A DNA stretch of 64,000 bases from Cellvibrio zantedeschiae (GTDB lineage: Bacteria > Pseudomonadota > Gammaproteobacteria > Pseudomonadales > Cellvibrionaceae), in contig NZ_BMYZ01000001.1 in the NCBI RefSeq assembly GCF_014652535.1, forward strand, positions 2,232,001 through 2,296,000, read 5' to 3'. Shown here one piece after another: positions 8,914-33,712 of this stretch (the first letter of the stretch is position 1; each line of letters starts with the position of its first letter). A program made the position numbers and the translations under genes. Below the pieces are notes generated by a model. It saw nothing but the letters and a program-made list of their open reading frames with translations, ran no database searches and was not told the DNA's origin.

Positions 8914-8915
8914 GC

Positions 8916-9520: not shown

Positions 9521-9606
9521 AACAGGAGTAACTCAAACGTTGATTAACACTTCTTGTTCTTACCACTTACATCTACCACACACTACACACAGGTCTTACA
9601 CACTCG

Positions 9607-15616: not shown

Positions 15617-16417
15617 ATGAATAGCTTGCAACGATTGATATCGGGCTTGGCGATAATGTTAGTAGTGACGCCCTTTGCCCAAGCTCAGTCCAACTATTCA
15701 ATGGGTGCCGGGGATGAGGTTCGCATGACCGTTTATGGTCAGCCAGAACTCACTACCGAAGGTCAAATCAACACCGATGGTACCCTTGATGTTCCCCTGA
15801 TTGGCGTAGTTAAGGTGGCGGGTCGCTCCAGTGGTGATGCCGCAAAATTAATTGCCGAGCGCTACCAAAGCGGCAACTTCCTTAAAAGCGCACAAGTGAA
15901 TTTACTCGTCACTAAATATCGCAGCCAAGTCGTTTCGATCCTGGGCAAAGTAAACCGCCCGGGAATGCTGGTGCTTGAAGGTTCAACCTCCCTCACCCAA
16001 GCCATTGCCTGGGCAGGCGGTATTTCCGACGCGGGCAATGAACGCGTAATCCTGATTAGGACCGACGCTAACGGCCGCCAGGAGCGCCGTGAATATAACC
16101 TGCAAAAACAATTAGAGAGTGAAGCTAGCAGCAACTCGGTAGTCTGGTTGCAAAACGGCGACACGCTTTATATCCCAAATGCTGACCGCTTCTACGTGAG
16201 CGGTGAAGTACGCACGCCAGGTATGTACCCGCTAGACCGCCCGCTAAACGTTATGCAGGCCATTGGCGTAGCCGGTGGACCTACCGCCCGTGCGAGTGAT
16301 CGCTCGGCAAAACTCTATCGCAAACAAGCCGATGGTTCCGTCAAAGAGCTCAAAGCCAAACCCGATGACAAGGTGTTAGACGGCGATGTCATGGTCGTTC
16401 AGGAAAGCCTGTTTTAA
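15617..16417 (+). CDS. Wza/EpsE-type polysaccharide export protein
   Basis: This 266-residue protein forms the periplasmic or outer-membrane export channel component for the polymer. It has a signal peptide (about 1-23, ending AQAQ) without a lipobox, a poly_export domain (YSMGAGDEVRMTVYGQPEL with DGTLDVPLIG), and two SLBB-type domains (SILGKVNRPGMLVLEG and VSGEVRTPGMYPLDRPL). The length and double SLBB are as in EpsE/EpsA of the EpsB-L systems rather than the shorter GumB. The start ATG at 15617 has AAGGAAG upstream. It is the first gene of the locus. Confidence 0.9.
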   Translation: MNSLQRLISGLAIMLVVTPFAQAQSNYSMGAGDEVRMTVYGQPELTTEGQINTDGTLDVPLIGVVKVAGRSSGDAAKLIAERYQSGNFLKSAQVNLLVTKYRSQVVSILGKVNRPGMLVLEGSTSLTQAIAWAGGISDAGNERVILIRTDANGRQERREYNLQKQLESEASSNSVVWLQNGDTLYIPNADRFYVSGEVRTPGMYPLDRPLNVMQAIGVAGGPTARASDRSAKLYRKQADGSVKELKAKPDDKVLDGDVMVVQESLF

Positions 16418-16441
16418 CAGCTCCAATGTGAAGGAATTTAT

Positions 16442-17842
16442 ATGATGACCCTCAATAGTTTGCTCCGTATTTTGTACGCACGCCGAGCCACTATCGGCAG
16501 TATTGCCCTTGCTGTTATTGCCTTGGCGATTGTGATTACCTTCCTGACGCCCAAGCTGTACATGGCGACTACCAATTTAATTATTGATGGCAAAGGACAA
16601 GATCCTGTGAGTGGCCAATCCATGCCAGCACGCATGATGACGGGCTACTTAACGACCCAGGCTGAGATTATTCGCAGCCGCAACGTTGCCAACAAAGTGA
16701 TTGACCAACTCAAACTCACGACCAAAGAAGATGTTGCGAATGAGCTAGGTTTGCCCGATAACGAAACCGAACGTCGCAAGGCATTACTGACTTATTTGGA
16801 TAAAGGTTTGGTGGTGGATACCGAACGTGAAAGCAACGTGCTCAACATCAGCTTTAAAGCTAAAAACCCGTTATTTGCTGCTCAACTTGCCGATGCATTT
16901 GCCCAGGCTTATATCAACACCAACCTTGAATTACGCATTGAGCCTGCCAAGCAGACTGCCCGCTGGTACGACCAGCAATTGGCGAGCATGCGCACCTCAT
17001 TGGTGGAAAAACAAAATGCCCTCTCTTCCTATCAGGAAAAGCACGACATTCTGGCAACCTCGGATCGGCTTGACCTGGAATCTGCAAAATTAGCTGAACT
17101 CTCATCCATGTTAATTGCAGCTCAAAACGAGCGCCTTAACAACACCACGCGCAATAACCAAATTTCTGGCAACCGTGGCGCACTGCCAGCCCAAGCGCTT
17201 GATAATCCCCAGGTACAACGCTTATCTGGCGAGCTTGCCCAAGCCCAAGCGAGGTTAGCTGACTTGCTCACCCGCGTAGGTGAAAACCACCCCCAATATC
17301 GCCAGGCGCAAGGTGAGGTAGATTCGCTGAACCAGCAACTCGGCCAAGCCTTGCGGTTTATCAACGGTAGCGTGCGCTCGTCTGTAGAGCTTTCGCAAAG
17401 CCGTGAGGAGCAACTGAAAGCCGAATTAGCAGCCCAAAAAGAGCGTGTTTTGCAGTTCAGCCGTAACCGCAACGAGCTGACCTTGCTGAAACAGGAGGTC
17501 GACAACTCACAGGCGGCTTATGACGCTGCTTTAGCGCGCGCCACCCAAACCAAACTTGAAAGCCAGGTAGCGCTTACCGACATTTCCATCCTCAACATTG
17601 CCCCGGTTCCTACCCGCGCAACTACCCCGCGCACGGCCATGAACCTGATGCTCGGCGTATTAACCGGATTGCTATTGGGTGTTGCAGTTGCGCTTGCGCG
17701 TGAGTGGATGGATAGACGTGTGCGCACTCCATTAGATATTGAACAGGGCTTGGGCTTGCCTGTTCTCGCCCGCATTCCCGCACTTACTGTGGGCCGCAGC
17801 GGCTTTGCTAACAAACGCTTCCTCACTCGTAACTTTTCATAG
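16442..17842 (+). CDS. chain-length determinant protein, Wzz/EpsF (GumC) type
   Basis: This is an inner-membrane polysaccharide copolymerase of 466 residues. It has one membrane segment near the N terminus (about 14-36), a large periplasmic domain rich in coiled coil (about 170-375, with many Gln/Ala heptads), the proline-rich PVPTRATTPRTAMNL motif, a second membrane segment (about 400-420) and a short basic tail. There is no fused kinase; the cognate kinase-like protein is encoded by the next gene. The layout matches EpsF and GumC, which control chain length together with the export channel. It follows the first gene after 24 bases. Confidence 0.9.
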   Translation: MMTLNSLLRILYARRATIGSIALAVIALAIVITFLTPKLYMATTNLIIDGKGQDPVSGQSMPARMMTGYLTTQAEIIRSRNVANKVIDQLKLTTKEDVANELGLPDNETERRKALLTYLDKGLVVDTERESNVLNISFKAKNPLFAAQLADAFAQAYINTNLELRIEPAKQTARWYDQQLASMRTSLVEKQNALSSYQEKHDILATSDRLDLESAKLAELSSMLIAAQNERLNNTTRNNQISGNRGALPAQALDNPQVQRLSGELAQAQARLADLLTRVGENHPQYRQAQGEVDSLNQQLGQALRFINGSVRSSVELSQSREEQLKAELAAQKERVLQFSRNRNELTLLKQEVDNSQAAYDAALARATQTKLESQVALTDISILNIAPVPTRATTPRTAMNLMLGVLTGLLLGVAVALAREWMDRRVRTPLDIEQGLGLPVLARIPALTVGRSGFANKRFLTRNFS

Positions 17843-17871
17843 CTCGTAACTTTTCCTAAATAGGTGATGAA

Positions 17872-18762
17872 ATGAACGAACTCGCACAAGCTGTACCCGT
17901 CGCCAACGCGCGCCAGGAAGCTACCAGCAAAGAACTTGTGAACAAAATTGGCAGAATGCTGGAGAGCCGCGGCAAAATTACCCGCGAAGAATTTAAATCC
18001 ATCATCTCTGTACAAAACGAACAAAACTTGCGTTTTGGCGATGCCGCCCTGCAACTGGGTTTAGTTGAGCGCGAAGATATTGATGCGATTCTCGCGGAGC
18101 AGTTTGCCTACACAGCTCCGCCTGATCGCAACACCACGCTCGATTCCAGACTGGTTGTAGCCTTTCAACCAGACAGTGCGGAAGCTGAGGCATTGCGCAG
18201 CCTGCGCAGCGAACTTTTACTGCGTTACTTCAATCGCGGTGAACACTTGAGCCTTGCTATTGTGGGCGCAGAAGATGCCAAAGGCATCGCCCTCACCGCC
18301 GCCAATCTCGCCATTAGTTTTGCGCAATTGGGCAAACGCACTTTGTTGGTAGATGCAAATTTGCGTTCACCACAATTGCACAAGCTTTTTGGTCACAACG
18401 AGCGCAATCCGGGCCTTACTGATTTAATCGCATCGCGCACCCTGGTTGAACCTATTGCCGTTCCCGATTTGGGCTCGCTCTGGGTAGTTGCTGCAGGAAC
18501 CCAGGCGCCTAACCCGCAAGAGTTGCTTGCTAGCCAAAATTACGCAGAGCGCCTACAAGATTTATCGGCGCATTTTGAAGTCATCATCATCAATACCCCG
18601 CCCCTTAATCACATTGTGGATGCCCAACTAATTTCGGCCCATTCGGGTGCAGCGCTCCTGGTGGTGCAAGAAAATGTTTCGCGTGTGCAAGACCTGGAAA
18701 CCATTTGCAACACATTGCACGGCGTGGGCGTTCGTTTGCTCGGCGCGGCTTTGCGGCAGTAA
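17872..18762 (+). CDS. EpsG-like BY-kinase homologue with degenerate nucleotide-binding motifs
   Basis: The 296-residue protein has the EpsG layout: an N-terminal helical domain like the type II secretion ATPase N domain (about 20-80, GKITREEFKSII and LRFGDAALQLGLV), then a ParA/MinD-fold tyrosine-kinase domain. The motifs are altered. The Walker A region (132-142) reads GAEDAKGIALT where the family has a GEGRS-type loop, the A' motif is DANLR (161-165) instead of DADLR, and Walker B is IIINTPP (238-244) with Asn replacing the catalytic Asp. There is no C-terminal tyrosine cluster. It probably acts as a structural regulator of the EpsF partner; loss of kinase activity is inference. Confidence 0.85.
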   Translation: MNELAQAVPVANARQEATSKELVNKIGRMLESRGKITREEFKSIISVQNEQNLRFGDAALQLGLVEREDIDAILAEQFAYTAPPDRNTTLDSRLVVAFQPDSAEAEALRSLRSELLLRYFNRGEHLSLAIVGAEDAKGIALTAANLAISFAQLGKRTLLVDANLRSPQLHKLFGHNERNPGLTDLIASRTLVEPIAVPDLGSLWVVAAGTQAPNPQELLASQNYAERLQDLSAHFEVIIINTPPLNHIVDAQLISAHSGAALLVVQENVSRVQDLETICNTLHGVGVRLLGAALRQ

Positions 18763-18783
18763 TTCAGCAATCATGAGGTTAGG

Positions 18784-20160
18784 ATGAAATACTCGCACCC
18801 TCACTCATGGACTGAGACTGTGGGTTCACCGGAAATAAAAAATTCGGCACTCGAATCAGGTTCGGTTAGTAACCGTTTTGATGACCGGATGATTATTGCA
18901 ATTGTGGTAGCCACGGTTGCCTACCAAGCTATCTTGTGCCTGCTCAATACTTACGGGCTGCATGCCTCGCGTACGCTTTTGGGGTTTTCCGAGGCCATTA
19001 TCCTCACCGCTTGCCTACCCTTTATTACACGCCGCTTATTGCCCGGTGTTATCACGATTATTGCGCTTTCCGGTGCGATGTTTTGTTTGCAATCCCTGGT
19101 TAGCGGCCAGGTCAATATCAAAACCTTCCGCGACCTTGCCATTCCACTCTGTTACTTGTGGGTGGGGTGCAATATTGGCCGCGTAGACCTGGCCAGCCGT
19201 GCGCTTACCTGGGCCATCTGGGTTGTATTGGTGATGGGGGCCATGGAGCTGTTCTTTATCGACCAATACACCAACTTCTTCGACATTTTCAGTTACTACG
19301 TCAATACCGGTAACCTCGACCCGGTACCAACCTACAACAACAGCAAGCTGCAACTTAACGGTATACGCCCGGAAGGCATAGGCCGCACTTTGCTACCTGA
19401 ATTGTTGGGCGCCCACCGTGTCTCCTCTGTATTTTTGGAACCCGTATCCCTTGGCAATTTCGCCACCATTTGCGCCGCATGGGGGTTGAGCCTGAATAAA
19501 ACCGAACTGCGCAAAACTGTATTTTTTGTGGTTATGGCGGTGGTGATGATTGTGATCTCGGATTCTCGTTTTGCCTTAACCACCGTAAGCTTGATGATTG
19601 CCATGCGGTTGGCGATTCACGGCCGCGCGCTCTACTTGCCTGTGCTAGCGCCCTTCGCAGCCATTGCACTGCTAATCGCCCTTGGCGAAAACGGCGGCAA
19701 ATTTGTGGAAGATAGTTTTTACGGAAGGCTGGCACTTTCTGGTAATGCGCTACACGAATTCGATATTCCCATGCTGTTTGCCATGACCGTTTCCAGCCCC
19801 TACGCAGATATGGGCTACGCCCATTTAATTTCAGCCTTCGGATTACCTATTTCGCTGCTGCTCTGGTTTGGTCTTTGGCTTTTGCCCATGCCCGACGAGC
19901 AAGGCCAGCGCTTCCGCGCCTTTGCGGCCATCTACATCGTTTTAATTTTATGCGTGAGCGGCTACTCGCTCTATGCACTCAAAACCTCTGGTGTGCTCTG
20001 GTTTCTGGTCGGCTGCTGCCTGAAAAACCCAGCACCTATTCCAAGTCGCCCCGGCATTAACGATTACAAGCGCGCAGCTGATGCACGCGCTGAAATGACC
20101 CTTGAGCCCATTTTGCTCGATGTAGGTAATCAGATCAGGAGAAGAACGGATGTCTATTAA
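18784..20160 (+). CDS. polysaccharide polymerase, Wzy/GumE-like
   Basis: This 458-residue integral membrane protein has about ten to twelve hydrophobic helices and a large periplasmic loop (about 175-225, containing RPEGIGRTLLPELLGAHRVSS). It is followed by SVFLEPVSLGNF and SDSRFAL, segments typical of putative EPS polymerases of the O-antigen ligase/polymerase type. It would join undecaprenyl-linked repeating units in the periplasm. Its place directly before the GumH homologue supports a GumE-like role. Its stop region overlaps the next start by 11 bases. Polymerases of this kind diverge fast, so the exact orthology is uncertain. Confidence 0.75.
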   Translation: MKYSHPHSWTETVGSPEIKNSALESGSVSNRFDDRMIIAIVVATVAYQAILCLLNTYGLHASRTLLGFSEAIILTACLPFITRRLLPGVITIIALSGAMFCLQSLVSGQVNIKTFRDLAIPLCYLWVGCNIGRVDLASRALTWAIWVVLVMGAMELFFIDQYTNFFDIFSYYVNTGNLDPVPTYNNSKLQLNGIRPEGIGRTLLPELLGAHRVSSVFLEPVSLGNFATICAAWGLSLNKTELRKTVFFVVMAVVMIVISDSRFALTTVSLMIAMRLAIHGRALYLPVLAPFAAIALLIALGENGGKFVEDSFYGRLALSGNALHEFDIPMLFAMTVSSPYADMGYAHLISAFGLPISLLLWFGLWLLPMPDEQGQRFRAFAAIYIVLILCVSGYSLYALKTSGVLWFLVGCCLKNPAPIPSRPGINDYKRAADARAEMTLEPILLDVGNQIRRRTDVY

Positions 20161-21310
20161 AGTTACTCACATAGTTCGCCAATACTTACCGTCGATTGGT
20201 GGAATGGAAGAAGTCGTGCGCAATATTGCCATGCACCAATTGCGTCATAGCAATCAGCAAACCCGCATCATTACGCTCAACCGCCTGTTCCGGAATGCGA
20301 ATACCGAGCTGCCCGAGCGCGAAATAATCGACGGCATAGAGGTTATCCGCCTGCCTTTTTACGGCTCCAGTCGTTACCCCATCTGCCCCACAGTTTTGCG
20401 CGAGCTTGGTGACACCGATGTGATCCACGTTCACGGTGTGGATTTCTTTTACGATTTCCTCGCGGCCACCAAATGGCTGCACAAACGCCCTCTGGTTTTG
20501 TCTACACACGGTGGATTTTTCCACACCCAATTTGCGTCGCGTGCAAAACAAACCTATTTCAAAACAATCACTCGGTTGTCGTCCTTTGCTTACGACAGTG
20601 TGGTCGCTACCAGCGCTAATGACGGCGAGTTGTTCAGCCAAATTATGCGCAAGCCAAAACTGCAGGTGATTGAAAATGGTGTGGATACTGAAAAATACGC
20701 CGATGATGCTGCACTCGAATTACAACCCACCCTGATTTATTTTGGCCGCTGGTCGTCCAATAAAGGTTTGCTTGAAGCATTGGATTTATTCGCCCAATTG
20801 CGCGAGCGCGACGACCGCTGGCATTTGATTATTGCGGGGCGCGAATACGATCACAGCCTTGCGGAACTTCGTGCACAAGTTGAAGCACTGCGCCTTAACG
20901 GTCACGTCACTCTCGCTGCTAATCCTAGCGACGAGGAAATTAAAGATCTCATCCAACAGGCCAGCTATTTTCTTTGCTTGTCGCATCATGAAGGTTTTGG
21001 TATAGCACCCATTGAAGGTATGAGTGCGGGTTTAACGCCGGTGCTGAGCGATATTCCACCCTTTAAACGCTTGGTAGGTAATTCCGGTTTGGGTTTCAAC
21101 ATCAGTAATGAAACCAGCGCATCCGACGTGATTGATCAGCTTTTGCAGCTGCATGAACAAGGCGAATCAGCCTATGCAAAACGTCGCAGCGCCGCTATGG
21201 CATTCGCTAAACACTATGCCTGGTCTAAAGTCGCAGACCGCTACCTTGAAATTTATGAAGACCTCGCGGGCTCTGACAAGGGCCAGCTGCAGGGAGAATT
21301 TCAACCATGA
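20150..21310 (+). CDS. gumH: GumH-type GT4 alpha-1,3-mannosyltransferase
   Basis: This 386-residue GT-B glycosyltransferase matches xanthan GumH along its whole length: HIVRQYLPSIGGMEEVV at the N terminus, YGSSRYPICP, VHGVDFFYDFLA, STHGGFFHT, IENGVDTEKY, LIYFGRWSSNKGL, IIAGREYD and the catalytic-site HEGFGIAPIEGMSAGL. GumH transfers the first mannose from GDP-mannose onto the cellobiosyl-diphospho-undecaprenol at the cytosolic face. It overlaps both neighbours (11 bases with the polymerase, ATGA with GH5), so it lies within one operon. Recognition is from remembered family sequences. Confidence 0.9.
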   Translation: MSIKVTHIVRQYLPSIGGMEEVVRNIAMHQLRHSNQQTRIITLNRLFRNANTELPEREIIDGIEVIRLPFYGSSRYPICPTVLRELGDTDVIHVHGVDFFYDFLAATKWLHKRPLVLSTHGGFFHTQFASRAKQTYFKTITRLSSFAYDSVVATSANDGELFSQIMRKPKLQVIENGVDTEKYADDAALELQPTLIYFGRWSSNKGLLEALDLFAQLRERDDRWHLIIAGREYDHSLAELRAQVEALRLNGHVTLAANPSDEEIKDLIQQASYFLCLSHHEGFGIAPIEGMSAGLTPVLSDIPPFKRLVGNSGLGFNISNETSASDVIDQLLQLHEQGESAYAKRRSAAMAFAKHYAWSKVADRYLEIYEDLAGSDKGQLQGEFQP

Positions 21311-22386: not shown

Positions 22387-22416
22387 TGCTTTGTGTTTTC
22401 TTGGGGAGAAAATTTT

Positions 22417-23589
22417 ATGAACTTGAAAGATGAATTAAATGAGATCACTGCTAACAGCCCAAACTACACGGACGATAATGTTTATTTAGTCTTGTCTGCG
22501 CATGATTATCGCTCACCGCGCCGCGCAAATATTCATTTTATTACGTCGGAACTTGCCAAACGCGGACGCACGCGTTTTTTCTCGTTGCGTTACAGCCATC
22601 TTTCAAAATACACGTCTGACCCGCGCATTTCACTCGACTATGCAGCCAACCAAGTTGGAATTTATCAGGGCGTGGAATGTTATTTGTGGAAAACAACTAT
22701 TCATCCATTCAACACTCGTCGCCGCTGGTTGCGCCCGCTCGAAACCGCCATGTACAACTGGTACAGCAATGGCTACAACCAGGTACTGCGCAATTGGATT
22801 GAAGAAGCTACGGTTATTTTATTAGAGAGCGGTGTTGCGCCCGTGTTTTTTGATCTCATTAAAGAATTGAATCCCAACGCAAAAATTCTCTATCGCGCAT
22901 CAGATGCATTGGAAACAATCAATGTGGCCGAATACGTGAACAAAACCTTTGCACGCATCGCGAGCCAATTAAATACAATTGCACTGCCTTCCAAAGCACT
23001 CGCAGAAACGATTCCCAGTAAACACAATCTAGCCTTTGTTCCTCATGGAATTGATCATTCTGTTGCGCAACAAGCAGATCCTTCACCCTACGAATCAGGT
23101 ATTAATGCGGTGTCTGTGGGCTCCATGTTATTTGACCCGGATTTTTTTGTGCATGCGGCAAAACGGTTTCCCAATATTACATTTCATATTATTGGTTCGG
23201 GCCAAGCCACTCACCCCGATTATGGTGACAACGTAAAAATCTACGGCGAAATGCCATTCAACAAAACTTTGTGTTACATCAAACACGCGGATCTTGGTAT
23301 TGCCCCCTATTCCAGTGACAACATGCCCGCCTATTTACGTGATACCTCAATGAAATTAATTCAATATGATTTTTTTGAGATTCCGGCAATTTGCCCATTC
23401 TTTATTGCAGCGGATTATCCCAACCGTTTTGGTTACGAAATTGGCAATGGCGATTCCATTGAGCATGCGATCAAGCGCGCCCTAAATCCTAGCAAACCTT
23501 TAATTGCACAACGGGTTTTAAGTTGGAGCGAAGTTACTGAACGTATGTTGCAACCGCAACTCTATCGCGACACGGAGATGAGTCTATGA
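22417..23589 (+). CDS. gumK: GumK-type glucuronosyltransferase (GT70)
   Basis: GumK adds glucuronic acid from UDP-GlcA to the mannose of the lipid-linked trisaccharide. The 390-residue protein has the family's features along its length: SAHDYRSPRRANIHFI near the N terminus, CYLWKTTIHPFNTRRRW, YRASDALETI, VPHGIDHS, SVGSMLFDPDFF, YGEMPFNKT and SMKLIQYDFFEIPAICP. A GTG at 22393 opens the frame, but GGGGAGA lies inside that extension at the right distance from the ATG at 22417, which decides the start. The stop overlaps the gumM homologue by ATGA. Confidence 0.92.
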   Translation: MNLKDELNEITANSPNYTDDNVYLVLSAHDYRSPRRANIHFITSELAKRGRTRFFSLRYSHLSKYTSDPRISLDYAANQVGIYQGVECYLWKTTIHPFNTRRRWLRPLETAMYNWYSNGYNQVLRNWIEEATVILLESGVAPVFFDLIKELNPNAKILYRASDALETINVAEYVNKTFARIASQLNTIALPSKALAETIPSKHNLAFVPHGIDHSVAQQADPSPYESGINAVSVGSMLFDPDFFVHAAKRFPNITFHIIGSGQATHPDYGDNVKIYGEMPFNKTLCYIKHADLGIAPYSSDNMPAYLRDTSMKLIQYDFFEIPAICPFFIAADYPNRFGYEIGNGDSIEHAIKRALNPSKPLIAQRVLSWSEVTERMLQPQLYRDTEMSL

Positions 23590-24365
23590 CGGCCTATGCA
23601 CTCGCAGACAAAGAAATTTCCGACACTCTGATACTTGGTGGTTTTCCGTTACTGCGAACCACCTCGTCAGATTTATCAAAACAATTAGGACAAGTATTGG
23701 ATACGAATGAACAGCACCTGCTTTTCTTTGCCAACACTAATTTTATTGTTAAGTGCCAGCCCCTGCAAAAAAGTATGAGTGCGGTTAACACACTTATCGT
23801 AAACGACGGCATAGGTGTCGATATAGGCACCTGGCTAATCCACCGCAAAAAATTTCCAGAAAACCTTAACGGAACAGATTTTATTCCCCAGTATTTAAAT
23901 AGTGTACGGGATAAGGCACGGGTATTTTTATTTGGCGCCAAGCCAGGCATTGCGCAGCGAGCCGCAGAAACCTTACGTAAAGTTCACGGCGTAAATGTAG
24001 TTGGGACTTGCGATGGCTATGAACAGGCTAAAAGTTCCAACCAACTAATTAGCGATATGAATGCCGCAAATGCCAATGTGATTTTGGTGGCTATGGGAAA
24101 TCCTGCGCAGGAAAAATGGATTTTGGAACATCATCATCAATTAAATGCATCAGTTTTTATTGGTGTTGGCGCGTTGCTGGATTTCCTGGCGGGCGACAAG
24201 CCGCGTGCGCCACGAATAGTTCAGAAGCTTCGCCTGGAATGGTTCTATCGTTTGTGCCTTGAGCCCTCCCGGTTAATGCGTCGCTACACATTCGACATAG
24301 CCATCTTTCTGGCCTTGTGCTTAAGCACTGCAAAAGTACGAAAGACGGATTCACCGCTTAATTAA
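23586..24365 (+). CDS. gumM: GumM-type WecG/TagA/CpsF glycosyltransferase (GT26)
   Basis: The 259-residue protein has the WecG/TagA/CpsF family pattern: NDGIGVDIGTWLIH followed by NGTDFIPQYL, FLFGAKPGIAQ, VAMGNPAQEKWI, GVGALLDFLAGDKPRAP and a C-terminal LRLEWFYRLCLEPSRL. In xanthan synthesis GumM adds the second glucose (beta-1,4) to glucosyl-diphospho-undecaprenol. The start is the ATG overlapping the gumK stop. The specific sugar is inferred from the gum context; other members of the family use ManNAcA or other donors. Confidence 0.85.
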   Translation: MTAYALADKEISDTLILGGFPLLRTTSSDLSKQLGQVLDTNEQHLLFFANTNFIVKCQPLQKSMSAVNTLIVNDGIGVDIGTWLIHRKKFPENLNGTDFIPQYLNSVRDKARVFLFGAKPGIAQRAAETLRKVHGVNVVGTCDGYEQAKSSNQLISDMNAANANVILVAMGNPAQEKWILEHHHQLNASVFIGVGALLDFLAGDKPRAPRIVQKLRLEWFYRLCLEPSRLMRRYTFDIAIFLALCLSTAKVRKTDSPLN

Positions 24366-24382
24366 ATGATCAGGTAAAAATT

Positions 24383-25465
24383 ATGCGAATTCTAGCCTCA
24401 CCTGCTTTTGCAAATAAAAAAGTAAACCCCTACAACGCCCTGCTTTACAGCAACATGAAAGCTTTTACACGTGCGCACACCAAAAATTTGGTGCACGAAT
24501 ATTCACACAAAAAAGCCATTTTGGAAAAATTCGATATAGTGCACTTCCACTGGCCCGATGGTTACATCAATCAGAAAAATATTTTTAAAGCATTGCAAAG
24601 ATCTATTTTGCTGAGCTTTATTCTGATGATAGTCAAATTAAAAGGTAGCAAAATTGTATGGACCGTTCACAACGTTGCGCCACACGATGCATTTCACCCT
24701 CGCTATTCGCAAGCTTTTATGCGCTGGTTTGCCAGGCAATGCGACGGTTTGATTTTTATGAGCGAAGAAAGTAAAGCAACCTTCTTCAGCTTGTACAACT
24801 GCAAAGAGAATATTCACTACGCGATTATTCCCCACGGTCATTACCGCAATTCCTACCCTGACCCGATTGACCAGGCAGCAGCAAAAAACCATTTGGGATT
24901 GCCACAAAATAAGCAAGTGCTACTTTTTTTTGGCATGATCAAGCCCTACAAAAACATTGATTTGCTTATGGAGTTATTCACCCAGGCAAAACTCTTTGAT
25001 TATGTATTGGTTGTAGCAGGCAACACTGATTCACCAGAATTAAAAGAACGATTGAAACAGCATGCCAAAAATCCAAACATCCATTTGCTTTTGCAGTTTA
25101 TTCCCGACGACAGATTGCATATATATCTCAGCGCTGCTGATGCGGTAATTCTGCCTTACAAATCCATTTTAAATTCTGGCGCATTGCTGTTAGCCCTGTC
25201 TTTCAACAAACCTGTAATCGCTCCACATATTGGCGCGTTTGTTTCGTTGCAGCAAGAATTAGGGCGAAAATGGATTTATAGCTATGCGGAAGATTTGGAA
25301 GTCGGTGCATTAAAAAATGCATTGCGACATTTGGAAGCGCAAGACCGCAGCAGCCCTTGTCCATTGGAAAATTATGATTGGGACAAAATCGCGGCGTCGA
25401 CCCTCGCGTTTTATCGACAACTTTTTCCTATTTCATCCAGCTCGGAACAAGCATTGAGTTCATGA
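24383..25465 (+). CDS. gumI: GumI-type beta-mannosyltransferase (GT94)
   Basis: The 360-residue protein shows the GumI features as I know them: KVNPYNALLYSNM near the N terminus, FDIVHFHWPDG, WTVHNVAPHDAF, IIPHGHYRNS, FFGMIKPYKNIDL and, most telling, ILPYKSILNSGALLLALSF. GumI adds the terminal beta-mannose of the xanthan side chain to glucuronic acid. With gumD, gumM, gumH and gumK it completes the five-transferase set. Its stop overlaps the flippase start (ATGA at 25462). The donor sugar is inferred by homology. Confidence 0.85.
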   Translation: MRILASPAFANKKVNPYNALLYSNMKAFTRAHTKNLVHEYSHKKAILEKFDIVHFHWPDGYINQKNIFKALQRSILLSFILMIVKLKGSKIVWTVHNVAPHDAFHPRYSQAFMRWFARQCDGLIFMSEESKATFFSLYNCKENIHYAIIPHGHYRNSYPDPIDQAAAKNHLGLPQNKQVLLFFGMIKPYKNIDLLMELFTQAKLFDYVLVVAGNTDSPELKERLKQHAKNPNIHLLLQFIPDDRLHIYLSAADAVILPYKSILNSGALLLALSFNKPVIAPHIGAFVSLQQELGRKWIYSYAEDLEVGALKNALRHLEAQDRSSPCPLENYDWDKIAASTLAFYRQLFPISSSSEQALSS

Positions 25466-26952
25466 ATCTTAAGCAGAATTTAGGTAGAAGCACCGCATGG
25501 ATGAGCCTTGCCGCAAGTGGCAATAGCATCATCAGCTTCATTATTTTTATTGTACTGTCACGCATCCTGAGCGCGACTGATATAGGCTTGGTGGCATTTG
25601 CACTTATTGTTGTGGAAATTGGCAAACTTATTGTCAACGCGGGTATCACACAAGCCGTTATCCAACGGGCAGAATGGGACAATACCTATGCATCCACGTG
25701 TTTTTATTTAAACGTATTTTTTTCGGTTATTGTTACTTTCGTCACCATGTTCGTCGCAGCGCCCATACTTGCCCACTACTATGAACCCGCAGCTGCACCC
25801 ATCTTAAAAGTCTTGGCGATCATATTTTTCCTGGAAGGTTTAAAGGCAGTTCATGAAGGAAAATTAAAACGCGAATTTTCATTCCGCGTGATAGCCCTAA
25901 GAACCATTGTGGGCAGTTTGGCTTCTGGCGTGCTGGGAATTTATTTGGCCTTCAACGGTTTTGGTGTATGGGCACTGGTATGGCAACAGATTGTTTGCCA
26001 ATTATTAATCAGCTACATCACCATCAGCTCAGCCAAATGGATGCCAAATTTTTCCTACTCATGGAATTACTCCAAACAAATTCTCAGCTTTTCAACCCCG
26101 CTCACGGGCGCACAAATTATTGGCAACATAGGTTCAAAAATTTTTGAAATGCTCGTTGGCATTATGATGGGGCCCGCTGCATTGGGTTTCTTTCGCGTTG
26201 GCGGAAGAGCGCTTTATATCTTACAGGACGTCGTCTTAAAGCCGCTTGAAACCACCATTCTGTCTGCGCTTTCGCGTATTGAACAACCGCAACAACAGGC
26301 CTTGGGAGTTATGCGAATTATTCGCATGAGCTGTTACATCACCTTCCCGATTTTCTTTGGCGCTGCTGCCATAGGCCCGGAATTTATTACCTTTGCATTC
26401 GGTGAAAAATGGGAAATGAGCGGCTACATAATGACTGCGCTCGCTATTGGAATTGCTCCACTAGTCGTTAGCCAGCAAATTAATGCCGTACTCACCGCCA
26501 GCGGAAACTCACATCTTGTTATGGTGCTGGCGTCTATCACCTTTGTTGCCAATTGCGTGTTTGGGTCAATCGCAATTCCATTTGGGCTTATTGCAACCGC
26601 CTTGGCGTTTTCGCTGAGAAGCTATCTAACGCTATTTTTTAATTTGCAATTTTTTAAACGTGTTTATGGTTTCGGCATCCTGCATGTTTTAAAAATAGCT
26701 GCCCCCTCTTTTATATCTTCACTTCTAATGTTTGCAGGTTTATTTGCGATTAAGTTATTTGTTACCAACAGCCTGCCTCCCGTTCTGGCATTAATTATTC
26801 TGTGTGCAAGCGGTGCAGTTATATACGCCCTGTGTGTGCGCATTATTTTCAAGCAGGAGACAAAAATATTTCTGCTAGAAACAATTGATCTTGTTCCTTT
26901 AAAACTAAAACCCGTATTGGGGAATATACAGCGCTTGATTAAATTGACCTAA
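25462..26952 (+). CDS. gumJ: GumJ-type lipid-linked oligosaccharide flippase (Wzx, MOP superfamily)
   Basis: This 496-residue integral membrane protein has about twelve to fourteen hydrophobic helices and the polysaccharide-transporter pattern near the N terminus (GRSTAWMSLAASGNSIISF), then IAPLVVSQQINAVLTASG in the second half. It would flip the finished undecaprenyl-linked unit to the periplasm. The open frame reaches back to 25378 inside gumI. The ATG at 25462, which overlaps the gumI stop by ATGA, is the natural start. Confidence 0.85.
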   Translation: MNLKQNLGRSTAWMSLAASGNSIISFIIFIVLSRILSATDIGLVAFALIVVEIGKLIVNAGITQAVIQRAEWDNTYASTCFYLNVFFSVIVTFVTMFVAAPILAHYYEPAAAPILKVLAIIFFLEGLKAVHEGKLKREFSFRVIALRTIVGSLASGVLGIYLAFNGFGVWALVWQQIVCQLLISYITISSAKWMPNFSYSWNYSKQILSFSTPLTGAQIIGNIGSKIFEMLVGIMMGPAALGFFRVGGRALYILQDVVLKPLETTILSALSRIEQPQQQALGVMRIIRMSCYITFPIFFGAAAIGPEFITFAFGEKWEMSGYIMTALAIGIAPLVVSQQINAVLTASGNSHLVMVLASITFVANCVFGSIAIPFGLIATALAFSLRSYLTLFFNLQFFKRVYGFGILHVLKIAAPSFISSLLMFAGLFAIKLFVTNSLPPVLALIILCASGAVIYALCVRIIFKQETKIFLLETIDLVPLKLKPVLGNIQRLIKLT

Positions 26953-26988
26953 ATTCTCGACAAGCGTTTTTCCATAGGAGTAGTACAT

Positions 26989-27780
26989 ATGAAGTCCTAT
27001 CTTATCAATCTCGATAAGGATACTCACCGGCTTGGCTTTTTCAAATCCAACTTTGAACGTTTAGGGATTCCCTTTGAGCGAATTTCTGCTGTCGATGGTC
27101 GCACCTACAGCGATCAGGATTATCAAAATTTCATGAGCACTCGCCCGAGAAATTATAACCGCGACAAGCCAAAAACCTGGCTGCGCGGCCAAATGGGGTG
27201 CTTTCTTAGTCATTACTGCGTGTGGAAAAAAATTGCCGAAGGGAGAGAAAATTTCTGTGCAGTCTTTGAAGATGATATCCACATCTCTGATGACCTGAAA
27301 TATGTATTGCAAAGTGATAGCTGGATTCCGCAAAACATCGATGTCATTCGCCTGGAAACTTCAACCAATAGAATTCGCCTGACAACACAGCCAGTGCTCA
27401 GCTATAAAAAGCGAAATTTGTATGGTGTAAAATCCACCAGCTGGTGCGCTGGCGCCTATATTATTAATCGTAAAACGGCACAACGCTTAGTCGCCTTGTC
27501 TGAAAAATATCACGAGCCAGCCGATGTCATGCTCTATCATTTTGATGAATCGGTTATCGCCAAGGATTTAAATATCCTGCAATTTAATCCAGCCTTGTGT
27601 ACGCAGGACAAACACCTGGCCGACAGTAAGCTTGAAGGCAAGGTTAAATTTTCCAGCAATATAGAATTTGATAACGTGCCTAAAACAGGTCTTACCGGTA
27701 AGCTAAAAAAATACTCACCCGTGGCTATCCTTACTGCAATAAGCCGTTCGTTAAATGGCTATAGACGTATAAGTTTTTAA
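26989..27780 (+). CDS. glycosyltransferase family 25
   Basis: The 263-residue protein begins with the GT25 signature YLINLDKDTHRLGFF and has FERISAVDGR, GQMGCFLSHYCVWKKI and the acidic VFEDDIHIS motif expected to bind the metal and donor sugar. GT25 members add galactose, glucose or other sugars in LPS and glycoprotein synthesis. It is the last plus-strand gene of the locus, 36 bases after the flippase. It has no counterpart in the xanthan pathway, so it may add a further sugar, standing in for the missing acetyl and pyruvyl decorations. That role is inference. Confidence 0.85.
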   Translation: MKSYLINLDKDTHRLGFFKSNFERLGIPFERISAVDGRTYSDQDYQNFMSTRPRNYNRDKPKTWLRGQMGCFLSHYCVWKKIAEGRENFCAVFEDDIHISDDLKYVLQSDSWIPQNIDVIRLETSTNRIRLTTQPVLSYKKRNLYGVKSTSWCAGAYIINRKTAQRLVALSEKYHEPADVMLYHFDESVIAKDLNILQFNPALCTQDKHLADSKLEGKVKFSSNIEFDNVPKTGLTGKLKKYSPVAILTAISRSLNGYRRISF

Positions 27781-27784
27781 CTCG

Positions 27785-27808
27785 CGACTGGTGTGTATTC
27801 ACCAGTCG
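27785..27808. repeat. palindromic hairpin between convergent GT25 and epsL genes
   Basis: A perfect 9-bp inverted repeat (27785-27793 with 27800-27808) with a 6-base loop lies in the short gap between convergent genes. Neither strand has a T tract beyond it, so it is a weak terminator at best. The core (CTGGT, four variable bases, ATTCACCAG) recurs at 30764-30781, beyond the other end of the epsL-gumD block. Confidence 0.6.
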
Positions 27809-27864
27809 GAATTAAATATGAGAGGGAACATTTTAAGCAGGGGAAATGATTCGGCACCAAATAT

Positions 27865-29022
27865 CTAATAATAAAAGAATAAACCCGCACTCACCTGCCG
27901 CGAGAGATAATTACGAACCGCTATACGCGAATCATTTTTTCGCCACCCCGAATCCAGCCGCACTTTCCAATGATGCCCGGAATCGAAAACAATTGTTAGA
28001 GGCATAAAATTATGCAGTTTTTCTTTTCTGATTAAATCCGGACTCAAATTTCCGTAATCAATAACCGAGTAAGCGGCAGAAGATCCAATACTCCACTTAC
28101 TTGAATACTGCCAAAGCGCACTTACAAAAACTGTTTTTACACGCGATGGCGAATCCGACGTTTCACCTATAGCGGGTTCATTTAAGGTATATCCACCCTT
28201 AAGATTAATTTTCTCGGTTGCTTGCCATTCCACACCAAGGCTCGCTACAGAACCCGTGGCGTCATTAATACTGCCATCGCGTTTATAGCGTGCAACCAAT
28301 GCAGAAAAAGTTGTTTTTGGTGAAAGAACCCACTGGCTATCAAGTTCAAGTTGTTGATAATCAAAATCCAGGTCAACATTTACCGGACTTCCCGTTAAGG
28401 GATCAATAAGGGGATTGGTATAAGCACGATTACCGGATTTGTAACGCAAAAACACATTGGACTTGTTGCTTGTTTGGTAGCCTACATCTGCAAAGCCCTC
28501 TTCCTCTTCAAAGTCCAAAGAATTGCGCTGGTAATTTGAGTGCTCTTGAGTAGATTTGCGACCACCGACGTGGAATGACAATCGTCTGTCATTGCCATAG
28601 CCAATTTTTGCGACCAGATCGTCACGAGTGACTATATCTTTTCCAAAGAACTCTAGCCGATCCACTTGATACGAGTTGCGAGAAAAATCAACATCCGTAT
28701 TAAATTGTTCACCGAACAATCCTTTCCAGCTCAACTGGCCGGTATCAGTCGTTGCATCAAAATCCGGATGCTTATCATATTCATAATGACGTGCTTGCCA
28801 TTTTGCAATGAGCCGCTGACGACCAAAAGTATCATCAAAACTTATACCGGCAGATGATAAGACTGTACGCTCGGAATCATTCAGCGGAGTGCGGGAGAAA
28901 TTGCTGTCCCACACACCTTGCACTGAAGCATTTAATTGAAGTGGACCATCATCAGCAGCCAAACATTGGGTGCTGGCAAGGCTCAGTAGAAGTAAAGATT
29001 TTTTGTACAAATGTTTACGCAT
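27865..29022 (-). CDS. epsL: EpsL-type outer-membrane beta-barrel protein of exopolysaccharide export
   Basis: The 385-residue protein has a signal peptide (about 1-22, ending CLAADD) and then alternating aromatic/polar strands throughout (for example ASVQGVWDSNFSRTPL, WQARHYEYDK, YQQLELDSQWVL) ending in an aromatic C terminus (GLFFYY), as in outer-membrane barrels. The WDSNFSRTP start and overall pattern fit the EpsL family found next to EpsE/EpsF/EpsG systems. It probably helps carry the polymer across or along the outer membrane. It is on the minus strand just downstream of gumD and could be cotranscribed with it. Confidence 0.8.
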   Translation of the reverse strand: MRKHLYKKSLLLLSLASTQCLAADDGPLQLNASVQGVWDSNFSRTPLNDSERTVLSSAGISFDDTFGRQRLIAKWQARHYEYDKHPDFDATTDTGQLSWKGLFGEQFNTDVDFSRNSYQVDRLEFFGKDIVTRDDLVAKIGYGNDRRLSFHVGGRKSTQEHSNYQRNSLDFEEEEGFADVGYQTSNKSNVFLRYKSGNRAYTNPLIDPLTGSPVNVDLDFDYQQLELDSQWVLSPKTTFSALVARYKRDGSINDATGSVASLGVEWQATEKINLKGGYTLNEPAIGETSDSPSRVKTVFVSALWQYSSKWSIGSSAAYSVIDYGNLSPDLIRKEKLHNFMPLTIVFDSGHHWKVRLDSGWRKNDSRIAVRNYLSRQVSAGLFFYY

Positions 29023-29084
29023 TCATCGTCATTCCTTTTCAATGTATCCGATTCATATATCCCGGTTTCACTTGTGTCCGCAAA

Positions 29085-30545
29085 TCAATAAGCATGTTGC
29101 CCTACAAAACCTCTGAACAAGGTTCCCCAAAGAATTTTCAAATCAAGCAGCAAAGACCAATTGCGGATGTATTCCAAATCGTAAGCAATACGCCCTGACA
29201 TTTTATCGAGCGTTTCAGTTTCACCGCGGTAACCATTAATTTGCGCAAGCCCGGTAATACCTGGTTTAACTTTGTGGCGCAGCATATAGCCTTTAATTTG
29301 TCCGCGATAAAACTCATTGTGCGCAACCGCATGCGGACGAGGCCCAACTAAAGACATACTGCCCGACAGAACATTAAACAGTTGCGGTAATTCATCCAAT
29401 GAAGTGCGACGTAAAAAATTTCCAAAAGGCGTAACACGCATATCACCTTTTTTTGCCTGGGTCACACTATCGCCATCTTCACACACGGTCATGGAGCGAA
29501 ACTTCCAGACTTTAATATGCTCACCGCCCATACCGTAGCGCGTCTGTTTAAAAAAGATTGGGCCTTTTGATGTCAACTTCACGCCTATTGCAATAAGCAA
29601 CATAGGAATTGAAAGTGCGATTAGCATACCAAGGCCAATCACCACGTCTTCAAGACGTTTTGCAAGGCTGTTATCAACTAAAGGAGAGTCGTAAATACTT
29701 AGCGCAGGAATACCCTGGATGCAGGTCAAACGCGAATGCAACAAATCAAAATTAAACACATCCGGAATAACATAGGGAGTCACGGTTGTATCAGCAAGGC
29801 GATTAATAACGGCGTGAATGCGGAACTCGGCGCGCATTGGCAATGTCACAAAAACAATATCAATTTTTCCATCGCGAGCATCCTCATAAAGCTGATCGAG
29901 ATCGCCATTTACCGGCACGCTTTGCTCTTCTACATCCAAACGACGCTCGTCATCGTTGGTGATGCGGTCATCGTAAAAACCCACCACGCGGTAACCAAGC
30001 CAGGGAGTATCTGCAAGAGAATTAATCATGCGTACACCCAACTCATTTGCACCTACGATGGCTACACGACGGGGCTCAGAGGGACTTGAGCGCAATTTTG
30101 CGAGCACAACCCGGCGTGCCCAGTGCAAGCTAATCATCACTTCCGGTGTAATTGCCAACCACAAGATGACCGATTGCAAATCTATTTTTGCAAATGGCAG
30201 AACCGATATGAGTGCCACCGCAATTAGCAAAGCGGTAAGCAACCATGAAAAAATCAATCGCGAGGCCAAACTTGTCATCGAATAACCGCGCCACAAATAA
30301 TAGACTTCATTACCCTCAGCAAAAAAACCAAAAATAATGACTGCACCAATTGCAAGGATTGTGTAACCGTTATCCCACTCTATTTGCAATACACGCAGAA
30401 TAACCCACAACACACATACTATAAGCACACTATCCAAAGCACGAAACAAGGCGAGGATTTTAGAATGATGAAGTCGAATAACTTGCGGTTGGGTTGACAA
30501 ATTTGCAGGATACAAGGGTCCATTTGGCGTCATAGGACTGTTCAT
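29085..30545 (-). CDS. gumD: undecaprenyl-phosphate glucose phosphotransferase (GumD/WcaJ type)
   Basis: This initiating enzyme places glucose 1-phosphate on undecaprenyl phosphate. The 486-residue protein has four to five N-terminal membrane helices, a CoA-binding-like central domain (RRVAIVGANELGVRMINSL near 165), and the C-terminal bacterial sugar transferase domain with KQTRYGMGGEHIKVWKFRSM, RRTSLDELPQLFNVL, MSLVGPRPHA and GITGLAQINGYRG. The length and three-part layout fit GumD and WcaJ. It starts the pathway whose later transferases are on the opposite strand at 20150-25465. Confidence 0.92.
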   Translation of the reverse strand: MNSPMTPNGPLYPANLSTQPQVIRLHHSKILALFRALDSVLIVCVLWVILRVLQIEWDNGYTILAIGAVIIFGFFAEGNEVYYLWRGYSMTSLASRLIFSWLLTALLIAVALISVLPFAKIDLQSVILWLAITPEVMISLHWARRVVLAKLRSSPSEPRRVAIVGANELGVRMINSLADTPWLGYRVVGFYDDRITNDDERRLDVEEQSVPVNGDLDQLYEDARDGKIDIVFVTLPMRAEFRIHAVINRLADTTVTPYVIPDVFNFDLLHSRLTCIQGIPALSIYDSPLVDNSLAKRLEDVVIGLGMLIALSIPMLLIAIGVKLTSKGPIFFKQTRYGMGGEHIKVWKFRSMTVCEDGDSVTQAKKGDMRVTPFGNFLRRTSLDELPQLFNVLSGSMSLVGPRPHAVAHNEFYRGQIKGYMLRHKVKPGITGLAQINGYRGETETLDKMSGRIAYDLEYIRNWSLLLDLKILWGTLFRGFVGQHAY

Positions 30546-32935: not shown

Positions 32936-33712
32936 ATGAAAAAGATCAAACCACTTGCACTTACTATTATTGCTACTCTCCCCCTAACTGCTCTGGCTGC
33001 GTCCAGCAGCTCCAGCAAAATACCGGACTGGAAATTAGCGGAAGCCACCGAAGTATGGTCACCGGTACCGGCCGTAGTAACAGCCAATGAAAACACCCCA
33101 CCCTCTGATGCTATCGTTTTGTTCGACGGCAAATCTCTCAGCCAATGGCAAGGTGTTGAAGGTGGCGATGCAAAATGGACCGTGCAAAACGGTAGCTTCA
33201 CAGTAGCGCCAAAAACTGGCGATATTAAAACCAAAGAATCTTTTTGCGATGTGCAATTGCACGTTGAATGGGCGACACCCACCAAAGTTACCGGCGATGA
33301 TGGCAAAGAATTAACCAGTCAGGGCCGCAATAACAGCGGTATTTTCTTGCAGGAACAATATGAAGTACAAGTATTGGATTCCTACAACAACAAAACTTAT
33401 TCCAATGGCCAAGCGGGTTCTATTTATAAGCAACATATTCCACTGGTTAACCCAACCCGCGCACCGGGCGTATGGCAAACCTACGATATTATTTTTACCG
33501 CGCCAAAATTCAGCAGCGATAAAAAATTAACTTCACCAGGCCGCGCTACCGTGTTGTTAAACGGTGTGCTGGTGCAAAACAATGTTGAAATCCAGGGTGC
33601 TACCGGTTGGATTGGAAAACCTGTTTACACCGCTCATGGCTGCGCGCCATTGCGTTTACAAGATCACGGTAACCCAGTGAGCTTCCGTAACATCTGGGTT
33701 AGAAAATTGTAA
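32936..33712 (+). CDS. secreted DUF1080 (3-keto-disaccharide hydrolase-like) protein
   Basis: The 258-residue protein has a signal peptide (about 1-21) and one DUF1080 concanavalin-like domain: [21 protein letters not shown] near residue 60, [33 protein letters not shown], and a C-terminal [16 protein letters not shown], all standard for the family. Characterised relatives hydrolyse 3-keto-glycosides or bind sugars. It is followed after a terminator hairpin by a larger protein that also contains a DUF1080-type domain, suggesting a shared periplasmic sugar pathway. Confidence 0.9.

What the first reader, a model, noticed from the sequence alone, without database searches (positions are those of the whole stretch)
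15617..30545. Hybrid xanthan-type exopolysaccharide locus: five Gum transferases on an Eps export chassis
The locus encodes homologues of GumD, GumM, GumH, GumK and GumI, the complete transferase set for the xanthan pentasaccharide, plus GumE- and GumJ-like proteins. Polymer handling is by EpsE/EpsF/EpsG/EpsL-type proteins instead of GumB/GumC alone. GumF/GumG acetyltransferases and the GumL pyruvyltransferase are absent, and a GT25 transferase and a GH5 glycanase are present. Gene order is fully reshuffled relative to Xanthomonas. This predicts a beta-1,4-glucan with Man-GlcA-Man side chains, possibly extended by one sugar and not acylated, in a plant-polysaccharide degrader.
Basis: partly seen in the sequence, partly recalled or inferred. 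Interest (0 to 1): 0.78.

Follow-up and report, generated by a model that had tools for sequence, protein, structure and literature searches.

The report
Xanthan-type slime locus of Cellvibrio
A bacterium of, or very near, the genus Cellvibrio carries a conserved gene cluster that should build a slime with the same repeating sugar unit as the food thickener xanthan, together with an enzyme likely to trim that slime, so xanthan-type assembly is probably not confined to Xanthomonas and its kin.

Summary
Confirmed and enlarged. The 13 genes at 15617-30545 are real: GumD, GumM, GumH, GumK and GumI relatives with Wzx/Wzy, EpsE/F/G/L-type export proteins, a GH5 and a GT25. GumK is 56% identical to Xanthomonas GumK and keeps its catalytic Asp. 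A profile of Xanthomonadaceae GumI hits one window ORF only.

It is no one-off hybrid. The core lies in the same order in 15 same-genus loci as far as their contigs reach, and variants lie in Marinobacter, Aromatoleum, Azoarcus, Halorhodospira and others. The core is stable; the side-chain end is swapped: 8 of 10 loci with gumI carry a GumL-type pyruvyl transferase, 0 of 6 without gumI, and the window lacks it.

The GH5 belongs to the locus: the next own-genome relative is 26% identical, and the 14 EPS-locus GH5s sampled group together beside GH5s found in 33 of 34 gum-bearing Xanthomonadaceae genomes. Best reading: a xanthan-type Wzx/Wzy polymer trimmed by its own endoglucanase. The product's chemistry is untested.

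The parts
15617..16417 (+). epsE: outer-membrane polysaccharide export protein (Poly_export + SLBB), GumB-like role
   Evidence: PF02563/PF10531; TIGR03028 219 bits, below cut-off 262.65
16442..17842 (+). epsF: chain-length determinant (Wzz/GNVR), GumC-like role
   Evidence: PF02706, PF13807; TIGR03017 427.5 bits over cut-off 422.75
17872..18762 (+). epsG: tyrosine-autokinase-like ATPase without a Walker A GK(S/T); MshEN-like N-terminal part
   Evidence: TIGR03029 255.8 bits, below cut-off 313.8; NF053729 34.1 bits, below cut-off 38; 22 homologues aligned, none with GK(S/T)
18784..20160 (+). Wzy/GumE-like polymerase
   Evidence: no Pfam or NCBIfam hit; profile of Xanthomonadaceae GumE 121.7 bits, E 1.1e-36
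20150..21310 (+). GumH-like GT4 alpha-mannosyltransferase
   Evidence: PF00534/PF13439; 42-53% identity in Xanthomonadaceae gum loci; profile 515 bits
21307..22386 (+). GH5 endo-beta-1,4-glucanase of the locus; signal-like N-terminus; NEP and GEFG motifs intact
   Evidence: PF00150 148 bits; nearest solved structures 4w7u/5hpc; alignment; groups with other EPS-locus GH5s
22393..23589 (+). GumK-like GT70 glucuronosyltransferase
   Evidence: GumK_N 220 bits; 2hy7 471 bits; 56% identity, catalytic Asp conserved
23586..24365 (+). GumM-like WecG/TagA-family glucosyltransferase
   Evidence: PF03808 187 bits; 44-50% identity in Xanthomonadaceae gum loci
24383..25465 (+). GumI-like terminal beta-mannosyltransferase
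   Evidence: profile of 48 Xanthomonadaceae GumI: 184 bits, only window ORF at E<1e-3; 25-29% identity
25462..26952 (+). Wzx/GumJ-like flippase
   Evidence: PF13440 228 bits; profile of Xanthomonadaceae GumJ 118.9 bits
26989..27780 (+). GT25 transferase, a variable gene of the side-chain end
   Evidence: PF01755 112 bits; in 5 of 16 same-genus loci, window included
27865..29022 (-). EpsL-like outer-membrane protein
   Evidence: TIGR03014 123 bits, below cut-off 275
29085..30545 (-). GumD/WcaJ undecaprenyl-phosphate glucose-1-phosphate transferase
   Evidence: TIGR03023 518.8 bits over cut-off 410.75

Best explanation
The locus makes a xanthan-type exopolysaccharide by the Wzx/Wzy route. GumD puts glucose-1-phosphate on undecaprenyl phosphate and GumM adds the second glucose. 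GumH adds an alpha-mannose branch, GumK a glucuronic acid and GumI a terminal beta-mannose. GT25 may add one more sugar or decorate another position. The Wzx flippase moves the unit across the inner membrane and the GumE-like Wzy joins units through the cellobiose backbone. EpsF with EpsG (probably regulatory rather than an active kinase) sets chain length, and EpsE and EpsL carry the chain across the outer membrane. [quoted passage not shown] Relatives keep the core and swap the side-chain end: GumI with a GumL pyruvyl transferase, another GT4, GT25, or none of these. Shown: gene content, homology, conservation, co-variation. Inferred: each reaction, the sugar order, the GH5 substrate, its export and where it acts.
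For: GumK: 471 bits to 2hy7 over residues 30-395; 56% identity; the residue matching catalytic Asp157 (role: passages of PMC12768416) is invariant in 14 of 14 aligned sequences (the match by numbering is mine). In 49 Xanthomonadaceae gum loci the window proteins hit in gum order: GumD 35-45%, GumH 42-53%, GumK 51-57%, GumM 44-50% (a few loci lack a gene at a contig end). GumI: 184 bits, sole window ORF. GumL-type pyruvyl transferase in 8 of 10 same-genus loci with gumI and 0 of 6 without; the three compared are 39-42% identical to a Xanthomonas GumL. This makes a xanthan-like pyruvylatable end likely where both genes are kept. GH5: next own-genome hit 26%; in 16 of 16 same-genus loci and 10 of 11 loci of other genera, 0 of 49 Xanthomonadaceae gum loci; the 14 sampled group together at 92/91 support; catalytic motifs intact in 12 of 12 aligned locus GH5s. 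Precedents in print: Xylella EngXCA2, a GH5, shortens that strain's xanthan-like EPS (PMC10653819, abstract and passages); acetan and Kozakia clusters contain a glycoside hydrolase/putative endoglucanase gene and gumK (PMC7961339 section 3; PMC5050591 section 13 part 1). gumH/GH5, gumK/gumM and gumI/wzx overlap by 4 bases.
Against: No sugar analysis exists. A gumK gene does not guarantee glucuronate: Ga. diazotrophicus has a gum-like cluster with gumK, yet its polysaccharide is reported without glucuronic acid (PMC5050591 section 13; PMC7961339 section 2). GumI is only 25-29% identical to the Xanthomonadaceae proteins, so donor or linkage may differ. The closest relative of the window locus (L026) has no gumI in the locus, so this lineage may be leaving the pentasaccharide. 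The gumI/GumL link rests on few independent events (4 pairs, 2 or 3 concordant, sign test p 0.25-0.5; with any PF04230 protein 3 or 4 of 4, p 0.125-0.25), and the window itself breaks it: gumI without GumL. Whether the gumI-less genomes have gumI elsewhere was not searched. Xylella EngXCA2 may not be the orthologue of this GH5; its sequence was not compared. The GH5 group is not sealed off: L116, from a genome without a GumK hit, is 44% identical to XacCel5A, as near as several EPS-locus GH5s. Gene expression was not examined.
Confidence: 0.72

Rival explanations
1. An acetan-like or otherwise divergent polymer: the core Glc-Glc-Man-GlcA is made, but GumI and GT25 have drifted to other sugars, so the side chain is not the xanthan one.
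For: Side-chain genes vary within the genus while D, M, H and K do not. GumI is 25-29% identical to the Xanthomonadaceae proteins against 51-57% for GumK. Acetan shares the core and differs at the end (PMC7961339 section 2).
Against: GumI matches the Xanthomonadaceae GumI profile and no other window ORF does; GumL-type genes occur with gumI in 8 relatives.
Confidence: 0.25
2. The GH5 is an ordinary plant-cell-wall cellulase that happens to sit in the operon.
For: It belongs to a cellulase family; the neighbouring group in the tree holds XacCel5A of Xanthomonas (92% identical to one of its members), and an X. citri endoglucanase, BglC3, is secreted and needed for full virulence (PMC4780785, passages; that BglC3 belongs to this group is recalled, not tested). 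The genus is known for plant-polymer degradation (recalled; PMC7232360 in the listing).
Against: It is kept in 16 of 16 same-genus loci and 10 of 11 loci of other genera, within 10 kb of gumK; the nearest own-genome GH5 is 26% identical; it overlaps gumH by 4 bases.
Confidence: 0.2
3. A recent hybrid: a Xanthomonas gum set dropped onto an unrelated Eps export set in this lineage.
For: Gene order differs from Xanthomonas, and four export proteins are best matched by the EpsE/F/G/L models.
Against: Same core order in 15 relatives and variants in other genera. In a GumK tree of 38 rows (11 of 49 Xanthomonadaceae chosen) the 16 same-genus sequences form one clade (100/100) and the Xanthomonadaceae another (100/99), neither inside the other.
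Confidence: 0.05

Closest known systems
Xanthan gum locus (gumB-M) of Xanthomonas
   Same: GumD, M, H, K, I, E and J homologues; 8 relatives of this locus also have a GumL-type gene
   Different: Other gene order; extra EpsG and EpsL; GH5 inside the locus; GT25; no GumF/G/L in the window locus; gumD at the far end on the other strand
Acetan and gum-like clusters of acetic acid bacteria (Komagataeibacter, Kozakia)
   Same: Kozakia: GumB, C, D, E, H, J, K and M relatives plus a putative endoglucanase; acetan cluster: GumE, GumK and a glycoside hydrolase Eg among others (PMC5050591 section 13 part 1; PMC7961339 section 3)
   Different: The Kozakia cluster lacks gumF, G, I and L and contains a ugd gene; the acetan side chain runs on through glucose to rhamnose; their export genes are called GumB/GumC or AceG/AceH. 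None of these sequences was compared here
Methanolan-type eps export proteins (NCBIfam EpsE/F/G/L)
   Same: Best NCBIfam matches for four window proteins
   Different: Only EpsF passes the curated cut-off; no exosortase gene was noticed among the locus genes (not searched genome-wide); the transferases are Gum-type
Xylella fastidiosa EngXCA2 with its xanthan-like EPS
   Same: A GH5 endoglucanase that shortens the strain's own beta-1,4-glucan EPS (PMC10653819, abstract and passages)
   Different: It has a cellulose-binding domain; its sequence was not compared here and it may belong to another GH5 group

Membership tests
Xanthan-type (Gum) biosynthesis locus | GumK (GT70) glucuronosyltransferase | tested here: met
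   471 bits to 2hy7; GumK_N 220 bits; catalytic Asp conserved
Xanthan-type (Gum) biosynthesis locus | GumD, GumM and GumH for the cellobiose-mannose core | tested here: met
   NCBIfam, tblastn and, for GumH, a profile
Xanthan-type (Gum) biosynthesis locus | GumI (GT94) terminal mannosyltransferase | tested here: met
   184 bits, only window ORF; 25-29% identity; homology only, activity untested
Xanthan-type (Gum) biosynthesis locus | GumL pyruvyl transferase | tested here: not met
   none in the window locus; one PF04230 protein elsewhere in the genome, 22% to the long type and no meaningful match to GumL; GumL-type in 8 relatives
Xanthan-type (Gum) biosynthesis locus | GumF/GumG acetyltransferases | tested here: not met
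   no Acyl_transf_3 protein among the locus genes; the rest of the genome was not searched
Xanthan-type (Gum) biosynthesis locus | Product is a beta-1,4-glucan with Man-GlcA-Man side chains | not testable with these tools
   needs EPS chemistry
Acetan-type locus | Gum core transferases plus an endoglucanase gene | tested here: met
   GH5 and D, M, H, K relatives in the locus; the unnamed locus L107 has gumK-GH5-wzy-gumH-gumM; the acetan eg gene itself was not compared
Acetan-type locus | AceQ/AceP/AceR glucosyl and rhamnosyl transferases | not tested
   no Ace sequences were in hand
Methanolan-type eps export (NCBIfam equivalogs EpsE, EpsF, EpsG, EpsL) | curated cut-offs reached by all four | tested here: not met
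   only EpsF passes
Active bacterial tyrosine autokinase (for EpsG) | Walker A Gly-Lys-Ser/Thr | tested here: not met
   absent from 22 of 22 homologues

The most novel reading that the evidence does not exclude
The locus defines a second, widespread kind of xanthan-type machine in Proteobacteria, made of a stable core and a swappable side-chain end. Its GH5 stands for a clade of endoglucanases dedicated to maturing xanthan-family polymers. On this reading the cellulases of the neighbouring clade in Xanthomonas and kin, usually counted as plant-cell-wall enzymes, are by origin EPS-processing enzymes.
Probability: 0.3. Interest if true: 0.78.

Novelty: new variant of a known kind. Interest (0 to 1): 0.58.

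Why it matters
Xanthan is an industrial polymer whose full transferase set is normally tied to Xanthomonas, a genus of crop pathogens. Here, relatives of the window, in or near a genus of cellulose degraders, carry D, M, H, K, I and a GumL-type gene in one conserved cassette, with natural variants of the side-chain end. That makes the side chain's effect on polymer properties testable by comparing natural strains. It also links one group of GH5 enzymes to xanthan-type polymers across several families, and so asks directly whether a group of bacterial cellulases evolved to trim the cell's own slime.

Tried and rejected
Recent hybrid with Xanthomonas genes: rejected on conserved order and the GumK tree. 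GH5 as one of many like cellulases of its own genome: rejected on own-genome identity. Own-genome PF04230 protein as the missing GumL: rejected; 22% identity to the long type and no meaningful match to GumL. First GumK tree with L033 and L108: their very long branches blurred its base; rebuilt without them and with 11 instead of 20 Xanthomonadaceae rows. GumK and GH5 co-occurrence in the Xanthomonas family looks near perfect, but a gyrB tree of 30 chosen genomes gives 3 independent contrasts on supported branches (4 on all), all concordant, which cannot reach significance; there I left out G877 (weak GumK), scored the weak G990 GH5 hit as absent and the G832 fragment as present, and G859 has the GH5 without GumK. 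Literature: no paper holds both Cellvibrio and gumK; other listings showed no report of this locus, but they are capped (18 of 18, 15 of 341, 1 of 1, 8 of 303, none of these eight with gumK) and cover openly licensed PMC papers only. XacCel5A gave no paper. Structure prediction was not used.
Full report
WHAT IS THERE. The window is G000:C1:2232001-2296000 of a 4.27 Mb genome. Thirteen genes lie at 15617-30545, eleven on the plus strand and two (epsL, gumD) on the minus strand at the far end. gumH/GH5, gumK/gumM and gumI/wzx overlap by four bases. Pfam and NCBIfam give: polysaccharide export (EpsE), Wzz/GNVR (EpsF, over its cut-off), EpsG-type ATPase, GT4 (gumH), GH5, GumK_N, WecG/TagA, a second GT4-like protein (gumI), a flippase, GT25, EpsL, and an undecaprenyl-phosphate glucose phosphotransferase over its cut-off; the Wzy-like protein has no hit.

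ORGANISM. The genus is therefore Cellvibrio or very near it. GumK_N occurs in 16 of 21 same-genus genomes (own one included) and 0 of 36 more distant relatives, in 2 of 369 genomes of the class draw (own included) and 4 of 398 of the phylum draw (own included, one below the family cut-off). Of the five same-genus genomes without it, two are 77-79% complete, one 92% and two 100%.

THE TRANSFERASES. GumK aligns over residues 30-395 with Xanthomonas GumK (2hy7, 471 bits) at 56% identity; the residue matching catalytic Asp157 is invariant in 14 of 14 aligned sequences, 13 of this genus plus 2hy7 (role of Asp157 from passages of PMC12768416; the numbering match is mine). In the 49 Xanthomonadaceae loci the window proteins hit in gum order: GumD 35-45%, GumH 42-53%, GumI 25-29%, GumJ 23-27%, GumK 51-57%, GumM 44-50% identity (truncated loci such as L085 lack some). 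Profiles built from the Xanthomonadaceae proteins each hit one window ORF at E below 1e-3: GumI 184 bits, GumH 515, GumJ 119, GumE 122. Those profiles were made from segments found with the window proteins, so the scores are not independent evidence of homology; the exclusiveness and the position in the Xanthomonas operon are. GumI was found in 48 of the 49 Xanthomonadaceae loci and in 0 of 11 loci of other genera.

A CONSERVED CASSETTE. The 15 other same-genus loci fetched show epsE-epsF-epsG-wzy-gumH-GH5-gumK-gumM-(gumI)-wzx-(end genes)-epsL-gumD as far as their contigs reach; L018 begins inside gumH, L026 inside epsE, and gumD of L027 reads in two frames. The named scan returned 70 loci: 10 of this genus (nine from genomes already seen), 49 Xanthomonadaceae gum loci, and 11 of other genera (Marinobacter, Aromatoleum, Azoarcus, Herbaspirillum, Glaciimonas, Halorhodospira, unnamed Betaproteobacteria). 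Of these 11, 10 have the GH5 and 8 have EpsG; the ones without are cut short by contig ends or the 10 kb flank, and in L092 only gumK was recognised. Order varies among them: Marinobacter, Aromatoleum, Azoarcus and Halorhodospira follow epsE-F-G-wzy-gumH-GH5-gumK-gumM, while L090 and L093 are rearranged and L103 has the GH5 on the other strand. No EpsG or GH5 hit is listed in any of the 49 (GH5 re-checked in 46 of them). In the GumK tree of 38 rows the same-genus sequences are one clade (100/100), the 11 Xanthomonadaceae rows another (100/99), and the other genera lie outside both.

A SWAPPABLE SIDE-CHAIN END. Among 16 same-genus loci (window included), gumI is present in 10 and absent from L021, L024, L026, L028, L029 and L030. 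A GumL-type pyruvyl transferase stands between wzx and epsL in 8 of the 10 and in 0 of the 6; three were compared directly with a Xanthomonas GumL, 39-42% identity. L027 has instead a longer, distant PF04230 protein, as does the fragment L101 (which has gumI); L019 has both kinds. A further GT4 follows wzx in L028-L030 and lies between gumI and wzx in L031 and L032. L024 has none of these end genes. GT25 is in the window, L021, L022, L026 and L027. Fisher p is 0.007 for GumL-type and 0.0009 for any PF04230 protein. On a ten-gene locus tree gumI changes 4 times, with 2 or 3 of 4 independent pairs concordant for GumL, 3 or 4 of 4 for any PF04230, none opposed: too few for significance. The window and L026 form one clade without GumL; L026 also lacks gumI. 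Other genera end differently: GT2 with a pyruvyl transferase in Aromatoleum, two sulfotransferases in Halorhodospira, acyltransferases in Glaciimonas and a betaproteobacterium.

THE GH5. Nearest solved structures are 4w7u/5hpc and relatives. NEP and GEFG motifs are intact in 12 of 12 locus GH5s aligned, and the window protein starts with a signal-like hydrophobic stretch (read by eye, no signal-peptide tool). In the own genome the next hit is 26% identical, whereas the Aromatoleum locus GH5 is 48% identical. In the class draw of 369 genomes, 4 besides the own one have a hit at E<=1e-30 with the window GH5 as query, at 30-34% identity; none of these is a GumK genome. With the L107 GH5 as query, 39 of 40 genomes have a hit: 33 of 34 Xanthomonadaceae gum genomes (34 of the 49 were given; G832 has only a fragment, L098's genome none), often three copies in tandem and outside the gum locus, and 6 of 6 others. 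In a draw of 217 genomes of that family, which overlaps the 34, 25 of 25 with a strong GumK have it; G877 with a weak GumK does not; 2 of 191 without GumK have a hit, one strong (G859, 49%) and one weak (G990, 37%). Much of this is shared ancestry: a gyrB tree of 30 chosen genomes gives 3 independent contrasts on well-supported branches (4 on all), all concordant (scoring choices under Tried and rejected). In a GH5 tree of 43 chosen rows the 14 EPS-locus GH5s group together (92/91) beside 23 from Xanthomonadaceae (90/92), but the root is not cleanly placed. XacCel5A falls in the Xanthomonadaceae group, 92% identical to one member; it is 39-51% identical to the EPS-locus GH5s, and one outside GH5 (L116) reaches 44%. 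The link of this GH5 with GumK is therefore strong but not exclusive.

HOW IT WORKS. See Best explanation. The core reactions follow from established roles of the Gum proteins. Clusters of the acetan type have core enzymes at lower identity to Xanthomonas (Kozakia GumK 44%, GumH 44%, GumM 29%; PMC5050591 Table 1), and acetan itself has the same Glc-Glc-Man-GlcA core (PMC7961339 section 2). Trimming by GH5 follows the Xylella precedent (PMC10653819, abstract and passages), in which a GH5 endoglucanase shortens a xanthan-like EPS; whether that enzyme is an orthologue was not tested. Precursors: two UDP-glucose/GDP-mannose dehydrogenase-family hits lie elsewhere in the own genome, so UDP-glucuronate supply is plausible; GDP-mannose genes were not searched.

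EPSG. None of 22 homologues from such loci has a Walker A Gly-Lys-Ser/Thr, so an active kinase is unlikely. The N-terminal part resembles the c-di-GMP-binding MshEN domain but below its cut-off (34.1 against 38 bits); PMC5013675 counts a Methylobacillus EPS protein among MshEN proteins (passage).

NOVELTY. Xanthan, acetan and gum-like clusters with an endoglucanase are known. I found no report of this cassette in the searches named under Tried and rejected, which are capped listings of openly licensed PMC papers. I rate it a new variant of a known kind, with a bolder reading for the GH5 group given in the section on the most novel reading.

Noticed in passing
window 17872-18762: EpsG lacks a Walker A GK(S/T), as do all 22 homologues checked, and its N-terminus resembles the c-di-GMP-binding MshEN domain below cut-off: a likely pseudokinase, perhaps c-di-GMP-responsive.
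   Followed up: partly
window 32936-33712: A 3-keto-disaccharide hydrolase/DUF1080 gene lies 2.4 kb beyond gumD, also in L026; a review lists a DUF1080 protein as a xanthanase (PMC10881899, passages).
   Followed up: no
L027, first 1.4 kb: gumD of genome G018 matches in two overlapping pieces in different frames: either a sequencing error or a broken initiating transferase in that strain.
   Followed up: partly
L095:16240-18063: The Halorhodospira neutriphila locus with the same core carries two sulfotransferases, hinting at a sulfated xanthan-type polymer.
   Followed up: no
L045:12032-15560 and L055: Aromatoleum loci carry a GT2 and a pyruvyl transferase where GumI and GumL-type genes would be.
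   Followed up: no
L093:2341-3435, 7060-9743, 11101-12207: Glaciimonas locus with two acyltransferases and two nucleotidyl-transferase genes, one with a mannose-6-phosphate isomerase domain.
   Followed up: no
L027:3898-4731: A DUF707-like protein just below the Pfam cut-off sits next to GT25 in one relative.
   Followed up: no
G000:C3:112345-113268 (L109): The own genome's single PF04230 protein lies on another contig, about 26 kb from a UDP-sugar dehydrogenase hit: perhaps a second polysaccharide locus.
   Followed up: partly
window 9607-10920, minus strand: A reprolysin-like metallopeptidase gene upstream of the locus.
   Followed up: no
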